Below, in pieces: positions 8,436 through 18,753 of a stretch of 64,000 nucleotides of DNA. The notes below the pieces were generated by a model. The model did not search any database. It was not told the origin of the DNA and saw nothing but the letters and a program-made list of their open reading frames with translations. The DNA lies in the NCBI GenBank assembly GCA_000403315.2, contig KE159636.1:2978233-3042232 (forward strand), in the 5' to 3' direction. The stretch's first letter is position 1. The number at the start of each line of letters is the position of its first letter. This DNA is from Lachnospiraceae bacterium A2. GTDB taxonomy: Bacteria; Bacillota; Clostridia; Lachnospirales; Lachnospiraceae. A program made the translations under genes and the position numbers.

Positions 8436-9279
8436 CTATTGTTTGATAGTCTCCTTCCCCCTCCATCCCCCCTGGAAGTACCGGAACACCGCTATCACAA
8501 GCCCCACTGCCCATCCCGCAGGGTTCGCCCACATAATTACCATCCCATGGGTGGCTTCCGCCAAAAGGTAGGTAAGCCCTACCCGGACCCCTAAGTTGCA
8601 CAGGCTGCAGGACAAAAACCATCCCATATCCGCCGCACCCCGGAGCACCCCGTTGCTGACATTCATAAGCCCCATCATAAAATAAAACAGGGAAACAATG
8701 CTAAGGTACTGAGCCCCGACGGCTATGGCTTCGCTGCTGGACTCTGAATCCAAAAAAAGCCCTACAAAGCCAGTCCCTGTAAAATGCAGAAGCAAGGCAA
8801 TCAAAAGCCCGATGCCAGCCGCCATGGCAAGGCAGATCCGGTAGCCCTGCCCAATCCGTTCCGGCTTCCTTGCGCCCATATTCTGGGCCACATAGGTGGA
8901 AACCGCATTTCCCACGGCCACCATGGGCACAATGGCAATCCCGTCGATTTTCGTTGCGGCTGTATACCCTGCCAAAAAAGCAGAGCCAAACTGGTTGACG
9001 GCGGACTGGACCAGCACCATCCCTACCGACACAATGGACTGCTGCACAATGGTAGGGATTGCCACTTTTACCATGTTTTTCAGCAAAGCCTTGTCAAAAC
9101 GGCGGAATTCTTCCGTTTCAATCCCCTTTAATTTCCGCATCAGGAACCCGAAAGAAAGCAGCGCGGAAATCCCCTGCGCAATCAGGGTCGCCCATGCCAC
9201 CCCCGCTACCCCCATATGGAGCTTTGCCACGAAATGCTGGATTGCCCGATACCATGCTCCCTTTGATTTGTCCTGACAT
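8436..9279 (-). pseudogene. MATE family exporter with large internal deletion
   Basis: ATG 9279 starts the typical MATE N-terminus MSGQIKGSMVSGNPA. At about 9238 the sequence jumps, in another frame, to VAKLHMGVAGVAWATLIAQG, which is mid-protein in this family. From there the C-terminal half reads cleanly to the stop at 8436 (VQQSIVSVGMVLVQSAVN, GYTAATKIDG, NMGARKPERIGQGY). About the first 190 codons after the N-terminal tip are missing. MATE proteins have about 450 residues and 12 membrane helices, so this remnant cannot be a working exporter. The stop lies only 4 bases from the end of the convergent DJ-1 gene. Confidence 0.75.
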
Positions 9280-9431
9280 AACCTTGCTCCACTCCTTATC
9301 TGCCGCCTATGGGCTGTCACTGGTCTGTCCAGGAATCAGACCTTGCCGGGACCTGGGGGTCGTACAGAGGGCAGCCCCCTCTTTGTATTTCCAGGAATTT
9401 AAATCCATGCTCATTGTAAAAGCCTCCATTC

Positions 9432-11567: not shown

Positions 11568-12137
11568 TTACGAAACCTTACCAAAGACTTTTTCCCTTAA
11601 ATAGACTTTACCGCTATTAAACTCCACTATCCTGCCCTCATAAAGAGAGTTAAGTGCCTCACATATCCTATCACACTCCAAATTTTTCCCTTCTTTTTGT
11701 TGATACCATTCCTGTACTTCATTTACAATACTATCTTCTTCAACCCCTGTCCCATATGCATTTTTTTCATGAAGGCAATAAACTATCCAAGACTCCATCT
11801 GGCTAATTTCCCGCTTGACAGACTTCACAATAAAAAAAGCAGAGGCGATCATTAATTGGATATAATTAAAAATATTTTCAGGCTCGCTTATAGATAATGC
11901 CAATTCCAAACCTGCTATCAGCGCCTTTTTAAAATCTATTTTCACATTTCCAGCCTTATAGGATGCCGATTTTTCTCCTAAAAATACCATCCCTTTTCTC
12001 GCATCCTCTGGTATCACAGTAATAAAATGATCTACTAAATAATCACCTACCGCTTCCCCCATCCCATATTCCAGTGATGTCTGTTCCAATTCCTTCTTTA
12101 AAAAATTATTATATTCATCTGCTTCTCTCCGTGTCAT
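11568..12137 (-). CDS. Unrecognised protein of the restriction-island module
   Basis: This 189-residue protein was not matched to a known family. It is mostly helical in look, with a hydrophobic stretch around residues 80-110 (LELALSISEPENIFNYIQLM, then IASAFFIVKSV). A C-terminal part (EWYQQKEGKNLECDRICEAL, then LYEGRIVEFNSGKVYLREK) could form a winged-helix-like unit. The start overlaps the end of the HEXXH gene by 23 bases, so the two are probably translated together. It is AT-rich like the hsd genes and is the last gene of that run. It may be a partner, inhibitor or DNA-binding regulator of the upstream peptidase, but nothing in the sequence decides this. Confidence 0.7.
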   Translation of the reverse strand: MTRREADEYNNFLKKELEQTSLEYGMGEAVGDYLVDHFITVIPEDARKGMVFLGEKSASYKAGNVKIDFKKALIAGLELALSISEPENIFNYIQLMIASAFFIVKSVKREISQMESWIVYCLHEKNAYGTGVEEDSIVNEVQEWYQQKEGKNLECDRICEALNSLYEGRIVEFNSGKVYLREKVFGKVS

Positions 12138-13200
12138 TTTTCTCTCCCTTAATACATTCTCTCTCCTCTATGCGGAGTATTCCATCTAACTTCCCTCTTT
12201 CCATCTTCAAAAGAAGCTGATCCCTATATTCATCATAGACATCCAAGAAACCACCATACAAATGGTTCCCATCCACAGTTTCGAAATCATAATCACTTTT
12301 ATTTACAATAGCAAACAAACGGTTTTTCCGTTTTATCGGCGTTGGATGTTGCCAATCATAAAAAACCGTCTTATACAGCACCCTATCTGTATAATAATAT
12401 AAATCAAAAAAATCCATGTACATCATAGGCGCCATGTAAGTATAATCCTTCAGTACAACGTCTTTTTCTTGCTCCTCCATGATTATTTTCAACACAATAT
12501 GATAAGCTATCATATCTGCATCATATTCTTCTTTTTCAGGATGCCTATCACTATATTTCTTTCCAATGCTTGCTAAATAGGCATGAGCTATCTCATGAGC
12601 CAAGCTGAAAACCACAATCGTCCAGTAGCAATCCTCCGCAAGCTGCAATATCTGAATGTCCTTGTCTACTGTTTCTAGCAACACTTTATTTGCATTCTCA
12701 CCCTGCATTTCTCCAAATATGCATACATCATTCATTAAAAATAAAACATATCTGAAACAGTTCCCATAAATATTAAGATCATCAAAATCCTTCGACCATT
12801 TCAACATTGCCAGAAGAAATGAACTTACTGTCGATTCAAATAATTCGTCGATATGTATAAATACTGGATTTTCCATGTCATTATAAATGTAGCTATTAAT
12901 GGTGTTCTGATAACTGTTTGTCAATTCAATTGCTGTACCAGAATAGCTAAATTCTTTCACAAAATATTTCTTCACCAACTCAAACATTGTTTGCAGATTG
13001 TAGCGTTCCATATTTTCTTTTAACTGTTTTTCTGTGAAATAGGCAGAAAAATATTGAAGCATAATTCTAATTCCATGCTCTTCATCCTTTAATGAATTGC
13101 CGCCAAACTTGAAAATTTCATAATCATCTGGTGGCAACAAAAATTTTTCTAAAAAAGGCATATCTCTTTCAAAAAAATTCTTTTGCTTTTCACTCTCCAT
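12115..13200 (-). CDS. HEXXH zinc-metallopeptidase-like protein in the type I R-M operon
   Basis: This 361-residue protein has a zincin active-site motif HEIAH at residues 202-206, in a hydrophobic helix (TIVVFSLAHEIAHAYLASIG). A likely third zinc ligand lies in EYDAD at 225-229, with a late HPTPIKRKNR at 285-294. HEXXH, E-x-x-A/D and HP-x-x-x-R in this order recall M48-type peptidases, but there are no membrane segments and the rest is not recognised. ATG 13200 has AGGGAGA upstream. It follows hsdS by 52 bases on the same strand, so it is likely part of the restriction operon. A role in defence, for example cleaving a host or phage protein when triggered, is only an inference from motif and context. 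Confidence 0.75.
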   Translation of the reverse strand: MESEKQKNFFERDMPFLEKFLLPPDDYEIFKFGGNSLKDEEHGIRIMLQYFSAYFTEKQLKENMERYNLQTMFELVKKYFVKEFSYSGTAIELTNSYQNTINSYIYNDMENPVFIHIDELFESTVSSFLLAMLKWSKDFDDLNIYGNCFRYVLFLMNDVCIFGEMQGENANKVLLETVDKDIQILQLAEDCYWTIVVFSLAHEIAHAYLASIGKKYSDRHPEKEEYDADMIAYHIVLKIIMEEQEKDVVLKDYTYMAPMMYMDFFDLYYYTDRVLYKTVFYDWQHPTPIKRKNRLFAIVNKSDYDFETVDGNHLYGGFLDVYDEYRDQLLLKMERGKLDGILRIEERECIKGEKNDTERSR

Positions 13201-13252: not shown

Positions 13253-14677
13253 TTACATTTCCTTCAAATCTTCGCATAATGGCAATAATTTATCCAACCT
13301 TTTTACTATTCTCTGCTGTTCTTCCACTGGCGGGAGCGGAATCATCATTTTTGATAAAGCCTTTCCATTACAATTTGGTTGGCATCCCTGTGTTTTCCCA
13401 TTTTGCAACTGTACCCAATATACTTGGCTTTCCATAAAAAATTTTAAGTACCTAGGAACCAACTGGGCATTATACCTTGTCCTTATTAAATATCCTGCAT
13501 AAATTGCATCTTCCACAAGGTCATCTACTAAAAATGATTTTCCAACTGTACCCCCTGTCCTTGCAAACAAAATATCATTTTTTTCCAAAAGATATGTTCC
13601 TATTTCTTCCTCCTTTATTTCACAATATGGAACACTATCCCAATTTACCGAATTATTTTGTATGTCACTGATACGAACCATTTTAATTTTTCCCATCTCT
13701 TGGGCAGGGGCATTATAACCATATTGAATGGAATATGCTAAATTCCCCCATCTTACCCACCTCCAATTTTCAGGGATGTCAAATGGAATTTCTTCTTCCT
13801 CAATATCTGGTAATGGCTTTTCCCTTTTTATTTTCTTATGTATAATCAATTCTTCTTTTTCTTGTTTAATTGATTCCAACAATTCATCCACACTGCTATC
13901 ACTCTCCAACTGCTCTGTCAATTCTCCTTGCATAGCAGCCTGAAGCAGTGCATTTTTCATATCATTTGGGAACGATTTCTTTAATATTTCCAGTTTTTTT
14001 TCTATCTTCCCATATTCATCAATTATAGGCATAATCTCATTGATTTTATCAACAATCCTTTGCTGTTCTTCAATTGGAGGAAGAGGGATAACCTTTTGCT
14101 GAACCATTGGAACCGTTAATTGCTTAACAGCCGTTCCTATACCATTTTCTACCAAAACCTTTAAGGCACATTGTATATAATATAAATTTGTCTGTTTTAA
14201 TGGAGTAATTACTAATAATCTGACAATCGGAACATAAGGATCTGTTCTAACAAGTGAAAATCCTATGGTACCACGTCCAGAAACAGTTAGGCTCTCCTCT
14301 TTTATAATTGCTTCATCTGTATATCCTAAAATTCCATCATTAGTTTCACCATTTGCAATAACAGGTATAGAAAACAACTTTGTTTTCTCTTTTGAAAAAA
14401 TTTTGGGCTTATCCCCTCCAGCAGTAATAGTTTTCACTACATCTCCTAACCTAACCCATCTCCAATTTTTAGGAATATCAAAGAGAACATCTTCTTCCTG
14501 AATTTCTGGCATTTGTTTTTCTTTTTTTATTATCTTATCTGCAATCAATTTCCCTTTTTCTCTTTTCATATTTGCCAGCATTTCATCCACATCACTATCC
14601 GCTTCAAGCTGTTTCGTCAATTTTCCCTGCAATGCTGCTTGCAATACTGCTTGCCTTAACTCTTCTGCTAACACCAT
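13253..14677 (-). CDS. hsdS: Type I restriction enzyme specificity subunit HsdS
   Basis: This 474-residue protein sets the DNA sequence recognised by the type I methylase/restriction complex. It is made of two parallel halves. Each has a conserved helical block (LQAALQGKLTKQLEADSDVD at about residue 13; LQAAMQGELTEQLESDSSVD at about 245), then FDIPKNWRWVRLGD or FDIPENWRWVRWGN, a variable target-recognition domain, and a coiled segment with PLPPIEEQQRIV or PLPPVEEQQRIV. The two variable domains differ, so a bipartite target is expected; it cannot be read from sequence here. Only one hsdS is present and no recombinase is near. The start is 2 bases after the hsdM stop. It is clearly AT-rich. Confidence 0.93.
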   Translation of the reverse strand: MVLAEELRQAVLQAALQGKLTKQLEADSDVDEMLANMKREKGKLIADKIIKKEKQMPEIQEEDVLFDIPKNWRWVRLGDVVKTITAGGDKPKIFSKEKTKLFSIPVIANGETNDGILGYTDEAIIKEESLTVSGRGTIGFSLVRTDPYVPIVRLLVITPLKQTNLYYIQCALKVLVENGIGTAVKQLTVPMVQQKVIPLPPIEEQQRIVDKINEIMPIIDEYGKIEKKLEILKKSFPNDMKNALLQAAMQGELTEQLESDSSVDELLESIKQEKEELIIHKKIKREKPLPDIEEEEIPFDIPENWRWVRWGNLAYSIQYGYNAPAQEMGKIKMVRISDIQNNSVNWDSVPYCEIKEEEIGTYLLEKNDILFARTGGTVGKSFLVDDLVEDAIYAGYLIRTRYNAQLVPRYLKFFMESQVYWVQLQNGKTQGCQPNCNGKALSKMMIPLPPVEEQQRIVKRLDKLLPLCEDLKEM

Positions 14678-14679
14678 AA

Positions 14680-16188
14680 CTACACTCCCAGCATATCTAT
14701 AATCTCTTGCAGTTTTGTATCCATCTTTCGTTCAAGCCTTTCCCTTTCCGCTTTAAAGTTGTCTATTGTTTCTTTCGGGGAAAGAATTACTTTTTCTTCA
14801 TTTGGGAACCCGCAGAAGTCTAAACTATAATCATTGGCAACAATTTCTTCCACTGATACTTTTTTCGCTTTCCAAGTTTCTGTCAAGGAACTATCTTCCT
14901 TCTCATCTTTTATTTCGATACGGTTCTCCCACCACTCATCAAGAACTGACATTTTCTCCCTTGTCATGGGATTCTTCTTCATAGAAAATTTCTGCCCGTT
15001 TGGCAAATCAAACCTGTAAAACCATACATCCTTTGTAGGTTCCGCTCTATCAAAGAAAAGTAAATTTGTTGCAATACCTGTATATGGAGAAAAACAACTT
15101 CCAGGAAGCCTAACAATTGTATGCAAATTATATTCCTCTAGCAGTTTCTTTTTAATAGCTCTTTTGCTGTTATCCGTGCCAAAAATAAAACCATCTGGAA
15201 GAACCACCCCACACCGTCCATTTTTATTAAGCCGATACATAATCTCTATCATAAAAAGATCCGCTGTTTCTGAATTTCTAAGTTCTGCCGGAAAATTTTT
15301 TTGCACAATTTCAAGTTCTGAGCCGCCATAAGGGGGATTCATGAGGATAACATCAAATTTATCATCTTCTGTATATCTTCTTACATCCTGTTCTAAGGAA
15401 TTGTCGTGCATGATATCAGGCTCTGCAATATCATGGAGCAACATATTTGTTGTACATAGCATATAGGGAAGCTGCTTCTTTTCCACTCCACAAAAAGAAT
15501 GTTGCAGCTTGGGCAAATCCTCCACTTTGATACCTGCATTTTCCACATGATAAAGAGCATCCACAAGAAAACCACCTGTACCACAAGCAAAATCTGCCAC
15601 CTTCTCCCCAATCTTAGGGTCTACTTTATCTACTACAAATGATGTGATCGCCCTTGGTGTGTAAAATTCCCCATTGTTCTTCTGCAAACCCTTCAGCAAA
15701 GTTTCATATATATCGTTAAATGCATGCCTTTCGTCATAATCGGAAAAGTCAATTTCATCAAATATATTAAGAAGCTGCCTGAGGAGAACCCCATTCTTCA
15801 TGAAGTTTGTAGATTCTTTCATGAACTCTTTCACAATAAGGGATGCCCGGTCTGTCTTTGTAAAAAGATAGACATCTTCCCCCTTTTCATTCTTAACAGA
15901 GTCCCCCGACAAGACCCGAAATAGCCTGCTATTTACAAAATCAATCAGTTCTTCCCCTGTCATCTGCTCTTTCTGGGAAGTTGACGTTACCCAATCCCTC
16001 CAACGGTATCCCTCTGGAATAATTGGAACATAATCATCCCATGTCAGTTCCCATTCTTCTTCCTTGTAATCAAATATCTTTAAAAATAAAATCCATACAA
16101 TCTGAGACAGCCTCTGCTCATCCCCACCAACACCTGCATCCCCACGCATAATGTCCTGTAATCTTTTTATCAGTGTAGATAATGCCAT
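14680..16188 (-). CDS. hsdM: Type I restriction enzyme DNA methyltransferase HsdM
   Basis: This 502-residue N6-adenine methyltransferase is complete. The N-terminal helical domain (LIKRLQDIMRGDAGVGGDEQ) precedes the SAM-binding motif DFACGTGGFLVDAL near residue 200 and the catalytic motif NPPYGG near residue 285. GEFYTPRAITSFVV before the SAM motif is also typical. It methylates the HsdS target to protect host DNA and forms the core of the complex with HsdS. It follows hsdR by 21 bases on the same strand. All motifs look functional. Confidence 0.95.
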   Translation of the reverse strand: MALSTLIKRLQDIMRGDAGVGGDEQRLSQIVWILFLKIFDYKEEEWELTWDDYVPIIPEGYRWRDWVTSTSQKEQMTGEELIDFVNSRLFRVLSGDSVKNEKGEDVYLFTKTDRASLIVKEFMKESTNFMKNGVLLRQLLNIFDEIDFSDYDERHAFNDIYETLLKGLQKNNGEFYTPRAITSFVVDKVDPKIGEKVADFACGTGGFLVDALYHVENAGIKVEDLPKLQHSFCGVEKKQLPYMLCTTNMLLHDIAEPDIMHDNSLEQDVRRYTEDDKFDVILMNPPYGGSELEIVQKNFPAELRNSETADLFMIEIMYRLNKNGRCGVVLPDGFIFGTDNSKRAIKKKLLEEYNLHTIVRLPGSCFSPYTGIATNLLFFDRAEPTKDVWFYRFDLPNGQKFSMKKNPMTREKMSVLDEWWENRIEIKDEKEDSSLTETWKAKKVSVEEIVANDYSLDFCGFPNEEKVILSPKETIDNFKAERERLERKMDTKLQEIIDMLGV

Positions 16189-16209: not shown

Positions 16210-18609
16210 TTAGTATAAAATTTCTTCTATTTGTTCCATTAACTCAATAAAATTTTGCTTTTTTCCACCAAATACATTTTTCAGTATCTTCATTGGCGTA
16301 TAACCCTTTTCTTTAAACACAGGAAGGTTAAAGACTGTAAGTTCTTTCAGCTTTGAAAAATCCTCTGTCTTATATTCGCTTAAAATAGTTTCAATAATAT
16401 CTCTTTTTTCAATGTCTAATTCATCTAAAATCCCCGAACCATAGACATTCTGCAGCCTTTCTTCTTTTGACTTTGGTGGCTGCTTGTACCCCACCAATCC
16501 AACAATATCAAATTTATCAATATAATAACCCACCGCAGTACTAACTTTCCTTACATATCCTCTTTCTATCAGAAGTCCCATAGCCAATCCATCCTTATCC
16601 TCCGATTCCTTAAAAGAAACATAAAAATCCTGATAGGTAGGATATTGAGCTAAAATATTATTTCTAACACAACTATCCATATTCTGCTTCACGAGGTTTC
16701 CATTTTCATCCGTATAACGCACCTCTTCCCCATCAATTGTTACATTCACGCCATTCACTTTTACTTTTTGAATATGACCTTTTGGATTGTACTTATCCTT
16801 CTTATCTCCCATCCCATCTGTTTCTTTTTGTGGGCTTCCTTTAGGAAATGGGCTATTCTCCTCAACTTCCATAATTGCTACAGGCTCTCCGTCAAATTCC
16901 GGGTCTTCAAACTGATGGTAATTTGACCTGAAATCTAAAATCGTGAAATGTAGCTTGCTCTTTTTCTTCTCATCTATTGTAAAGCTCTCATTAATTCTTG
17001 TTCCCCTGCCGATTGTCTGCTTAAATTCTGCCATAGAGCCAATGGACTTATCCAAGACAATCAACTCACAGGTTTCTGAATCAACACCAGTTGACATTAA
17101 CCTACTTGTAACTGCAATGACAGGATATTTCGTATTCGGGTCCGTAAAATTTTCCAGTTCTGCCTTCCCGATTTCATCATCGCCAGTAATCTTCATAATG
17201 TACTTGCTGTTTTCCTGAAGCAAATCTGAGTTGAGGTTTTTCAGTTTTAAAACCATTGCATCCGCATGGTCTATATTCTCACAGAACACAATTGTTTTGG
17301 CATACCTGCAATTATTTTCCTTCATATAATCCGTAATTCTCTTTGCAACGGTTTCCTGCCTTTCTTCCACCGTAATAATTCTGTCAAAGTCCTTTTGTGT
17401 GTAAACTTTATCTTTTATGGGATTGCCATCTACATCCAATTTACCAATCGGCGGCCTGTATCCTTCTTTATCAATGTTAAGTTCCACAGAAATAACCCTG
17501 TAAGGAGCCAAAAAACCATCCTCAATGCCCTGTTTCAATGAGTAAGTATATAACGGTTTGTTGCCTGTTTCTGAGCAAAAATAATTGATATTTGACACAT
17601 CTTCCGTTTCTTTCGGCGTAGCAGTAAGCCCAAGCTGTGTAGCAGAACTAAAATATTTTAGTATATCATGCCAGTTAGAATCTAAATCAGCAGAGCCCCT
17701 ATGGCACTCATCCACGATAATCATATCAAAAAAATCTGGAGGGAGTTCCTTATAATAATCTTTGTCCTTACTTTTTAGCTGTTGATAAAGTGCTGTATAT
17801 ACCTCATAGGCAGTATCCTTCTTTATGTTTGCACTTTTCATTTTTACCATAACGCCAGCGTCTACAAATGGCTTAAAATCTTTCTGCATAGTTTGGTCTG
17901 CAAGTACATTCCTGTCAACTAAATACAGAATTTTCTTTTTTGCTTTGCTTTTCCATAACCTCCATATAATCTGAAATGCGGTAAAAGTCTTGCCTGTCCC
18001 CGTTGCCATAACAAGAAGCATCCTGCTCTTTCCCTGTGCAACTGCATCAATTACCCTATTAATCGCAATCCTTTGATAGTATCTTGGTTTCTTTTGTTTT
18101 GCCTTTGACGCATCAAGATAATAAGGCTGGTTCATTAATCTAATTTCATCCTCTGTCAGATTCTTTTCTTTGATGTATCTTTCCCATAGTTCTTCTGGGC
18201 ATGGGAAATCTTGCATTTTCAGTCTTCCATTATTTTTATGGATAATCATATCCTCTTCGACTAAATCAAACCCATTTGTCGTATATGCAAAGGGTATCTC
18301 CAAAATCTGTGCATATGCAAGAACCTGCTGATAACCCTCCATCGCATTGTGTCCAATCCCCTTTGCTTCTACCAATGCCAAAGGAATATTGTCTTTATAC
18401 AGAAGGAGATAATCTGCTTTTTTCTTATCTCCCCTTGATACTTTATCACTATCAATATTTACCCTGCCATCCGTAAAACAATATTCCATCATCACGTTGT
18501 CAGGATTCTCTTTCCCCCACCTTTCCTGAATAATTGGAGTAATATATTTTTTCTTCGTATTTTCCTCATTCTTTTGCTGCTCTGCAATTTCTTCAGGTGT
18601 CAACTGCAT
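16210..18609 (-). CDS. hsdR: Type I restriction enzyme endonuclease/translocase HsdR
   Basis: This 799-residue protein cuts and translocates unmethylated DNA. Seen are the N-terminal PD-(D/E)xK nuclease segment (ALVEAKG, with an upstream acidic position), the Walker A motif LVMATGTGKTFTAF, the DEAD-like box IIVDECHRGSADL, and later helicase motifs (LGLTATP, VTSRLMSTGVD, QTIGRGTRINE). ATG 18609 is used because CGGAGGGG lies about 9 bases upstream; a GTG 15 codons earlier precedes that site. The length, about 800, is that of the shorter HsdR type. It is the first gene of the hsdR-M-S-peptidase run and has a good promoter 145 bases upstream. Confidence 0.94.
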   Translation of the reverse strand: MQLTPEEIAEQQKNEENTKKKYITPIIQERWGKENPDNVMMEYCFTDGRVNIDSDKVSRGDKKKADYLLLYKDNIPLALVEAKGIGHNAMEGYQQVLAYAQILEIPFAYTTNGFDLVEEDMIIHKNNGRLKMQDFPCPEELWERYIKEKNLTEDEIRLMNQPYYLDASKAKQKKPRYYQRIAINRVIDAVAQGKSRMLLVMATGTGKTFTAFQIIWRLWKSKAKKKILYLVDRNVLADQTMQKDFKPFVDAGVMVKMKSANIKKDTAYEVYTALYQQLKSKDKDYYKELPPDFFDMIIVDECHRGSADLDSNWHDILKYFSSATQLGLTATPKETEDVSNINYFCSETGNKPLYTYSLKQGIEDGFLAPYRVISVELNIDKEGYRPPIGKLDVDGNPIKDKVYTQKDFDRIITVEERQETVAKRITDYMKENNCRYAKTIVFCENIDHADAMVLKLKNLNSDLLQENSKYIMKITGDDEIGKAELENFTDPNTKYPVIAVTSRLMSTGVDSETCELIVLDKSIGSMAEFKQTIGRGTRINESFTIDEKKKSKLHFTILDFRSNYHQFEDPEFDGEPVAIMEVEENSPFPKGSPQKETDGMGDKKDKYNPKGHIQKVKVNGVNVTIDGEEVRYTDENGNLVKQNMDSCVRNNILAQYPTYQDFYVSFKESEDKDGLAMGLLIERGYVRKVSTAVGYYIDKFDIVGLVGYKQPPKSKEERLQNVYGSGILDELDIEKRDIIETILSEYKTEDFSKLKELTVFNLPVFKEKGYTPMKILKNVFGGKKQNFIELMEQIEEILY

Positions 18610-18753
18610 CCACTTTCCCCTCCGATTCTTTCCATTGTAATTTATTTCCTGCACATTTTCCAGAATTACATCTTCTTCATCACAAACAGGACTTACACCC
18701 CTCCATCCTGTCCGAATTCAATTCCTTTCTTACATACATTGCCATTTTTAATC

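What the first reader, a model, noticed from the sequence alone, without database searches (positions are those of the whole stretch)
11568..13200. Unrecognised HEXXH-peptidase and partner gene added to a type I R-M operon
After hsdR-hsdM-hsdS on the same strand come two overlapping genes. One has a zincin motif HEIAH (residues 202-206), EYDAD (225-229) and a late HPTPIKRKNR. The other is an unrecognised 189-residue protein that starts inside it. The tight spacing (52 bases after hsdS, then a 23-base overlap) and shared AT-rich composition suggest one unit acquired together. A peptidase tied to a restriction system could be a back-up abortive-infection effector, comparable in logic to the PrrC nuclease carried by EcoprrI, with the small gene as its inhibitor or trigger sensor.
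Basis: partly seen in the sequence, partly recalled or inferred. Interest (0 to 1): 0.75.

Follow-up and report, generated by a model that had tools for sequence, protein, structure and literature searches.

The report
Stand-alone protease and winged-helix partner module
Next to a bacterial DNA-cutting defence system sits a separate two-gene unit, a zinc protease and a small partner protein, whose partner family is also found beside two unrelated kinds of protease, so it may be the switch of an undescribed defence-like protease system.

Summary
The two genes are real and at the stated coordinates (minus strand), but they are not a restriction-modification accessory. Seven relatives found through the peptidase alone all have the partner beside it (7 of 7, one peptidase gene broken), and three more loci came in through the partner; none of these 10 has hsdR/M/S in the sequence held, two being cut or short upstream. 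The pair is a coupled module of its own. Known defence systems lie beside 4 of 11 loci, window included (R-M, Pycsar, Wadjet, DRT). The peptidase is a divergent zincin with Lit's three motifs (HExxH, ExxAD, HPx4R) and little else of Lit. The partner has a KxxN motif and a predicted C-terminal winged helix. Its family also follows C39-like cysteine proteases (three loci, one found independently through the protease), lies one gene before a trypsin-like protease, and extends one HsdM. Best reading: an exchangeable protease under a conserved winged-helix adaptor, probably an abortive-infection module. Function is inferred, not shown. Ten paper searches found no description of it.

The parts
12115..13200 (-). 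HExxH zinc-peptidase-like protein, 361 aa
   Evidence: H202 E203 H206 E225 A228 D229 H285 P286 R291 invariant in the 11 sequences aligned
12583..12597 (-). HEIAH zinc-binding motif (residues 202-206)
12514..12528 (-). EYDAD (residues 225-229), presumed third zinc ligand E225
   Evidence: ligand role inferred
12328..12348 (-). HPTPIKR (residues 285-291), HPx4R motif also present in Lit
11568..12137 (-). partner protein, 189 aa, overlapping the peptidase gene by 23 nt
   Evidence: adjacent in 7 of 7 relatives found through the peptidase and at three loci found through the partner
11946..11957 (-). KAGN (residues 61-64), family motif KxxN
   Evidence: KxxN in 14 of 14 partner-type sequences examined (13 of them used to see the motif)
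11592..11807 (-). C-terminal winged-helix domain of the partner (residues about 111-182)
   Evidence: AlphaFold2 model, block pLDDT about 71-91 there; VIA-align Z up to 10.9 to winged helices
13253..14677 (-). hsdS (neighbouring type I R-M, not part of the module)
14680..16188 (-). hsdM (neighbouring)
16210..18654 (-). hsdR (neighbouring)

Best explanation
The pair is a self-contained two-gene, defence-like proteolytic module carried on variable DNA, and it happens to lie beside a type I R-M operon here. The upstream gene makes a zincin protease (the effector). The downstream, translationally coupled gene makes a small adaptor of a conserved family (KxxN motif, hydrophobic helices, winged helix) that most likely binds the protease, keeps it silent, and releases or aims it when an infection-related cue arrives; the protease then cleaves a target protein and stops growth (abortive infection). 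Shown here: pairing and gene overlap, conserved zincin motifs, a predicted winged helix, the partner family beside three unrelated protease classes, defence systems next to some loci, no R-M found at the other loci. Inferred: protease activity, complex formation, silencing, trigger, target, anti-phage role.
For: Pairing in 7 of 7 relatives found through the peptidase, and the same pair at three loci found through the partner (L036, L037, L046). Overlap of 4-29 nt in the eight intact pairs measured, window included, and a 1-nt gap in L046. The two proteins diverge in step (r 0.91 over 9 loci, 0 of 5000 permutations; r 0.62, 32 of 5000, without L037 and L046). Zincin motifs in 11 of 11. The partner family lies directly after C39-like proteases in G370 (L020) and in the window's own genome (L048, 4-nt overlap), and in G1167 (L047) one ThiC-like gene separates it from a trypsin-like protease with a sub-cut-off EAD7. 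Zincin-partner profile against C39-partner profile: 95.5%, E 1.3e-8, 136 columns (both C39 partners had been found by partner similarity). Independent check: a third C39-like protease found by protease search (G131, L069) is followed by a 186-aa ORF that matches the zincin-partner HMM at 3.9e-9. Known defence systems next to 4 of 11 pair loci. A distant peptidase homologue lies by Gabija.
Against: No activity or phage data. At E up to 1e-15, 49 neighbour ORFs at six other pair loci gave only mad2 and mad3 matches in PADLOC; 41 control ORFs gave matches at least as strong (mad3 3.3e-101, PDC-S03 7.1e-51, mad8 8.7e-42). Defence linkage is thus 4 of 11 loci, and the neighbours of the three other positive loci were picked by eye before scanning. 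The two distant peptidases (L002, L006) do not have this partner, and one decayed copy (L003/L024) shows peptidase pieces without partner. The peptidase model is too poor to use (pLDDT 45). The family is rare: 1 of 398 sampled genomes of the phylum (its own); 5 of 397 of the taxonomic family, namely the window, one distant homologue, two remnants and one chance hit. A winged helix could equally make the partner a repressor or antitoxin.
Confidence: 0.45

Rival explanations
1. Regulatory switch of the BlaR1-BlaI or ImmA-ImmR kind: the partner is a winged-helix repressor and the zinc peptidase cleaves it to switch on its own operon or a mobile element.
For: Partner ends in a predicted winged helix that matches MecI and BlaI repressors (Z 9.1-9.5, mostly 66 residues); the peptidase has a sub-cut-off M78 (ImmA/IrrE) hit, 19.7 bits against 22; several loci carry integrase-, resolvase- or transposase-like genes nearby (read by eye). 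The biology of BlaI and ImmR is recalled, not from a call.
Against: The partner family also accompanies cysteine-type and serine-type proteases; cullin winged-helix domains score as high or higher (up to Z 10.9), so the match is generic; no XRE-type HTH was found in the partner.
Confidence: 0.2
2. Toxin-antitoxin type addiction module: the protease is a toxin and the partner its neutralising antitoxin, with no dedicated phage sensing.
For: Two small coupled genes on variable DNA; two decayed copies lack the catalytic part but keep partner sequence (G148/L004 joins the peptidase start to the partner end; G268/L021 shows partner pieces only).
Against: L003/L024 keeps peptidase pieces without a detected partner; L013 keeps the catalytic half of the peptidase; a partner-type domain as an extension of HsdM fits an adaptor better than an antitoxin.
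Confidence: 0.18
3. Restriction-linked back-up effector, PrrC-like: the peptidase is held by the R-M complex and released when phage inhibits R-M.
For: Same strand, 52-nt gap after hsdS, shared AT-rich composition; one HsdM elsewhere (L038) carries a partner-like C-terminal tail; an M48 peptidase next to a type I R-M island is in print (PMC12255303, passages read).
Against: 0 of 10 other pair loci have hsdR/M/S in the sequence held, two of them cut or short upstream; no plasmid record matches the peptidase although 389 match HsdR, with the caveat that plasmids of this bacterial group may be few there.
Confidence: 0.07
4. Not defence: cargo of mobile elements with another role, for example peptide processing linked to agr-type signalling.
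For: AgrB-like genes lie near L011 and the decayed L003 locus (read by eye); at 6 scanned loci no canonical defence system was found, and L013 was not scanned.
Against: Pycsar, Wadjet and DRT systems lie 133, 2532 and 249 nt from the pair at three loci in other genomes.
Confidence: 0.1

Closest known systems
Lit phage-exclusion peptidase (Peptidase_U49), E. coli e14
   Same: HExxH, ExxAD and HPx4R in the same order and similar spacing; Lit is a phage-exclusion protease (recalled; annotated 'cell death peptidase')
   Different: No similarity beyond 51 columns around the zinc site (hhalign probability 9%, E 0.0035; PADLOC Lit 17.2 bits; NCBIfam Lit 14.4 bits against cut-off 274). Lit's annotated neighbours are ymfE and intE; I did not compare them with the partner
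EACC1-caspase two-gene system and effector-associated domains (Kaur et al. 2020, PMC7159879)
   Same: A constant component plus protease in a two-gene conflict system; adaptor domains shared among effectors (section 30 and found passages read)
   Different: There the constant component is the 5' gene with one TM helix and the protease usually a caspase; here the partner is the 3' gene, ends in a predicted winged helix, and the proteases are zincin, C39-like or trypsin-like; no Pfam family matched the partner. No direct EACC1 profile comparison was made
RptR-RMS-DarTG-M48 island of E. coli (PMC12255303)
   Same: A zinc metallopeptidase gene lies next to a type I R-M operon (passages read)
   Different: Seven-ORF island with DarTG2; no winged-helix partner of the peptidase in the passages read. 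The window peptidase shows no M48 or YgjP-like Pfam match; the two peptidases were not compared directly
BlaR1-BlaI / ImmA-ImmR protease-repressor pairs (recalled)
   Same: HExxH peptidase with an HTH protein
   Different: Partner is of a different family and also accompanies cysteine-type and serine-type proteases; no sensor domain recognised in the peptidase

Membership tests
Lit / Peptidase_U49 | sequence match over the family profile above the curated cut-off | tested here: not met
   NCBIfam Lit 14.4 bits against 274; PF10463 not among Pfam hits and in the own genome only a chance place elsewhere, E 0.36; hhalign 9%
Lit / Peptidase_U49 | HExxH with downstream E..AD and HPx4R (as seen in Lit) | tested here: met
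   11 of 11 family members and Lit
Lit / Peptidase_U49 | cleavage of EF-Tu upon phage trigger (recalled) | not testable with these tools
   -
Peptidase_M78 (ImmA/IrrE) | Pfam gathering score | tested here: not met
   19.7 bits against 22
M48 / YgjP-like peptidases | Pfam PF01435 or PF01863 match to the window protein | tested here: not met
   neither listed for the window protein; relatives L006 and P0005 have sub-cut-off M48 hits, 15.5 and 16.4 bits against 20.3; the genome's YgjP is at C1:765066
Type I R-M accessory (PrrC-like) | recurrent linkage to hsdRMS in other genomes | tested here: not met
   0 of 10 other loci in the sequence held, two cut or short upstream
Type I R-M accessory (PrrC-like) | physical association with the R-M complex | not testable with these tools
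   -
EACC1 two-gene system | 5' component with one conserved TM helix plus 3' caspase-type protease | tested here: not met
   partner is the 3' gene and the protease a zincin; hydropathy of the partner is borderline (maximum 1.17-1.95 over 19 residues in 14 sequences)
Winged-helix domain (partner C-terminus) | three helices plus beta wing matching solved winged helices | tested here: met
   on a predicted model only: helices 113-124, 134-149, 155-167, strands 171-174, 177-180; Z 10.9, rmsd 1.2, 65 residues; Foldseek E-values not significant, best 0.15
C39-like peptidases (proteins beside partner relatives) | Pfam gathering score | tested here: not met
   P0003 21.4 bits against 24; L048 protein no match at E up to 0.01. 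The name rests on this weak hit and conserved Cys and His seen by eye
Type II toxin-antitoxin module | toxicity of one gene neutralised by the other | not testable with these tools
   -
Anti-phage defence system | protection against phage | not testable with these tools
   context only: 4 of 11 loci next to known systems

The most novel reading that the evidence does not exclude
The partner defines an undescribed family of winged-helix adaptors that control mechanistically unrelated proteases (zincin, C39-like cysteine, trypsin-like) as interchangeable effectors of one kind of bacterial immune module, and that can also be built into the methyltransferase of a type I R-M system, giving one shared switch for proteolytic and restriction defence.
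Probability: 0.3. Interest if true: 0.8.

Novelty: new variant of a known kind. Interest (0 to 1): 0.55.

Why it matters
If right, one small adaptor family explains several orphan protease genes in gut Clostridia and gives a handle (a profile and the KxxN plus winged-helix signature) to find more. It would add zincins and C39-like proteases to the effectors of modular bacterial conflict systems, parallel to the caspase and trypsin systems already described, and the HsdM extension would make a link between proteolytic effectors and restriction directly testable.

Tried and rejected
PrrC-like R-M accessory: rejected on neighbourhoods. Viral contigs: three scans found no relatives. Plasmids: no match for the peptidase, partner, P0004, the distant peptidase L006 or the HsdM tail; phages: one distant peptidase, MT836637, none for the HsdM tail. 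PDB sequence profiles gave only one chance-level hit. The peptidase model (pLDDT 45) was not used for fold searches. Three of the four more distant C39-like proteins (L070-L072) have a 208-232 aa gene just upstream that looked alike in architecture by eye, but profile comparison shows no homology to the partner (1.9%); the fourth (L073) has no such gene. No ORF of 60 aa or more in L002, L006 or L022 matches the partner profiles at E up to 1; P0006 against the partner profile gives 0.1%, and the short upstream genes of L002 and L006 do not match each other. HsdR families PF08463 and PF04313 do not match the window's HsdR; it was confirmed by PDB and plasmid relatives instead.

Rows dropped before counting: peptidase hit G080 (E 1e-4) lies in an unrelated 331-aa protein. 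Of the 8 of 392 genomes hit by the A5 profile at E up to 0.01, four (G140, G910, G993, G1046; E 0.002-0.009) were dropped as chance: three lie in longer unrelated proteins and one in a short frame with stops. L035 is the same contig as L010 and counted once. Partner-type places at E up to 1e-3 over (genome sets overlap): 11 loci, of which 8 have a protease in the same gene string (5 zincin, 2 C39-like, 1 trypsin-like one gene away), 1 is a peptidase-partner remnant (G148), 1 a decayed partner without detected peptidase (G268), 1 the HsdM extension (G293). P0004 alone is a weak hit (2.7e-4 for one genome of 397); it gained support only from L048 and the independent L069. The control set is not clean: it includes ORFs from L059 (upstream of the L038 R-M locus) and L048 (the C39 pair locus). 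Neighbour sets were the longer ORFs, not every ORF.

Full report
What is there. On the minus strand, after hsdR (16210-18654), hsdM (14680-16188) and hsdS (13253-14677), come a 361-aa gene (12115-13200) and a 189-aa gene (11568-12137) that overlap by 23 nt, 52 nt after hsdS. Both start codons follow a similar TTAAGGGAGAGAA stretch (read). The block of about 11-19 kb is AT-rich (GC 0.34-0.39 per kilobase; 0.40-0.54 on either side). HsdR is a genuine type I R subunit; HsdM and HsdS match type I families below the equivalog cut-offs. Promoter-like and terminator-like sites in 11.2-19.1 kb do not exceed shuffled expectation (30 against 29.0; 2 against 4.5), so co-transcription with hsdS is neither shown nor excluded.

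The site is variable. All 12 other same-genus genomes searched have htpG; I fetched its surroundings in 7. A transporter gene (MATE-type by eye) homologous to window 8436-9320 lies near htpG in 5 of 7: next to it in L061 and L067, at about 1 kb in L064 and L065 (ORFs there not listed), and with two genes between in L063; L062 and L066 showed none. None of the 7 has the pair or hsd genes in the stretch held. The window's copy is 294 aa against 448-475 aa in the three relatives listed, its 5' part missing on the island side. The window thus seems to hold an insertion between the transporter and htpG, of which the AT-rich R-M and pair are a part.

The peptidase. Pfam gives only sub-cut-off M78 (19.7 against 22 bits), PADLOC gives Lit at 5.9e-4 over the zinc-site region, NCBIfam Lit 14.4 bits against 274. 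Seven close relatives came from the GTDB contigs (65-76% identity); L036, L037 (55%) and L046 (31%) came in through the partner; L002 and L006 are distant (about 25% over the alignment). HExxH, ExxAD and HPx4R are present in 11 of 11 intact members and also in E. coli Lit and in a second peptidase next to the L012 pair. Lit matches nothing outside 51 columns round the zinc site. I therefore call it a Lit/M48-like zincin of its own family, not a member of Lit, M78 or YgjP. The AlphaFold model is poor (pLDDT 45) and was not used further.

The pair is a module and R-M is not part of it. All seven relatives from the contig scan have the partner beside the peptidase and none has HsdR, HsdM or HsdS; in L013 the peptidase gene is broken by an inversion. 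The three loci found through the partner also have the peptidase (L036 ends at the contig edge within it) and no R-M. So 0 of 10 other loci have R-M in the sequence held, with L036 cut and L037 short (838 bases) upstream. Overlaps are 4-29 nt in the eight intact pairs measured, with a 1-nt gap at L046. The two proteins diverge in step (r 0.91). No plasmid record matches the peptidase, although 389 match HsdR. Decayed copies exist: L004 joins the peptidase start to the partner end, L003/L024 shows peptidase pieces only, G268 partner pieces only. The distant peptidases L002 and L006 do not have this partner.

Neighbourhoods. Known defence systems lie beside 4 of 11 loci: type I R-M in the window; Pycsar 133 nt downstream at L011 (PycTM 3.8e-16, PycC 4.3e-22); Wadjet JetABCD 2.5 kb away at L037 (JetA 8.8e-165, JetB 2.6e-73, JetC 0, JetD 1e-117); and a DRT of the UG5-nitrilase type 249 nt away at L046 (9.1e-183) (distances). 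The distant peptidase L006 lies near Gabija (GajA 5.9e-226, GajB 6e-193). Against this, 49 longer neighbour ORFs at L007, L008, L009, L010, L012 and L036 gave only mad2 and mad3 matches at E up to 1e-15 (at a looser limit the L007 helicase also matched DrmD at 1.3e-12), and 41 control ORFs gave mad3, mad8 and PDC-S03 matches that are stronger. L013 was not scanned. The association is suggestive, not universal.

The partner is the more telling half. Its AlphaFold model is fair overall (pLDDT 68) and good at the C-terminus, where three helices and a beta hairpin form a winged helix. VIA-align gives Z 10.9 (rmsd 1.2, 65 residues) to a cullin winged helix and 9.1-9.5 to MecI and BlaI; Foldseek E-values are not significant. 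A profile of the partner's second half finds, in 3 of 196 genomes of the class, L046 (1.1e-15, after a divergent zincin), L047 (1e-10) and, in the window's own genome, a second place on contig 3 (5.2e-4). At L047 the partner-type gene is followed by a ThiC-like radical-SAM gene and then a protein with Trypsin_2 (63.2 bits against 27.6) and a sub-cut-off EAD7 (24.5 against 32), with a large ATPase-like protein upstream (PADLOC PDC-M54A 2.9e-16). In the own genome (L048) and in G370 (L020) the partner-type gene overlaps the end of a C39-like protein (the two are 41% identical over 477 aligned columns; Pfam C39_2 21.4 bits against 24 for one, no match for the other). The zincin-partner and C39-partner profiles match at 95.5%, E 1.3e-8 over 136 columns. 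Those two C39 partners were themselves found through partner similarity, so I made an independent test: a search by the C39-like protein hit 6 of 195 genomes, the own one included. The closest new one (G131, L069) is followed, 12 nt on, by a 186-aa ORF that the zincin-partner HMM, which contains no C39 partner, hits at 3.9e-9; the weakest family member scored 4.3e-6 and the next hit 0.0012. The other four, more distant C39-like proteins have no such gene in the 1.5 kb held. KxxN is present in 14 of 14 partner-type sequences. In G293 (L038) the same half forms the C-terminus of a 702-aa HsdM (2.1e-5 for one genome of 392; hhalign 37%, E 3.5e-4; HMM 4.3e-6); HsdM_N and N6_Mtase are above cut-off there.

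Mechanism. The anatomy (constant small adaptor, exchangeable protease, gene overlap, some defence neighbours) fits a protease effector held or aimed by a winged-helix adaptor. I put 0.45 on a defence-type module of this design. A repressor cleaved by its protease (BlaI/ImmR-like) and a plain toxin-antitoxin pair are the main rivals, at about 0.2 each. Nothing here shows activity.

What is in print. Ten full-text searches of an open-access library gave no listing that describes this pair or partner; one search was swamped by unrelated words, and subscription papers and preprints were not searched. Closest are the EACC1-caspase system and effector-associated domains (PMC7159879: section 30 and found passages) and an E. 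coli island with an M48 peptidase beside a type I R-M (PMC12255303: found passages). Passages looked up in PMC11980606 and PMC12660161 held nothing relevant. Facts on Lit, PrrC, BlaR1/BlaI and ImmA/ImmR are recalled.

Noticed in passing
L048:7612-9635 (window's own genome, contig 3 at 62611-64634): C39-like protein overlapping by 4 nt a 195-aa gene of the same partner family, next to flagellar-looking genes; a second module of the same design in this genome.
   Followed up: partly
L047:6135-14946 (G1167): Partner-type gene, ThiC-like radical-SAM protein and EAD7/trypsin protein in one gene string downstream of a 1522-aa ATPase-like protein (PADLOC PDC-M54A 2.9e-16). A ThiC-like enzyme in such a string is unexpected.
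   Followed up: no
L038:3445-5553 (G293): HsdM of a type I R-M locus with a partner-like C-terminal tail (residues about 571-700).
   Followed up: partly
L012:11596-12768: A second HExxH/ExxAD/HPx4R peptidase (390 aa) directly follows the pair.
   Followed up: partly
L006:2120-3533 and L022:9362-10694: Distant peptidases overlapped by short upstream genes (157 and 133 aa) unlike the partner, near Gabija and a DUF2971/PDC-S31 gene respectively.
   Followed up: partly
L070:641-2964, L071:427-2958, L072:567-2931: More distant C39-like proteins each with a 208-232 aa gene just upstream that carries a cysteine cluster; not detectably homologous to the partner.
   Followed up: partly
window 8436-9320: MATE-type transporter gene (by eye) truncated at its 5' end on the island side.
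   Followed up: partly
L013:9735-10756: Start of the peptidase gene lies inverted next to its remainder; a real inversion or a metagenome assembly fault.
   Followed up: no
L039, L040, L041: Plasmid relatives of the C39-like protein in Mesorhizobium, Hymenobacter and Shewanella, each annotated with a 52-60 aa gene just upstream; neighbours include ThiF/multiubiquitin genes (L039) and a caspase family gene (L040).
   Followed up: no
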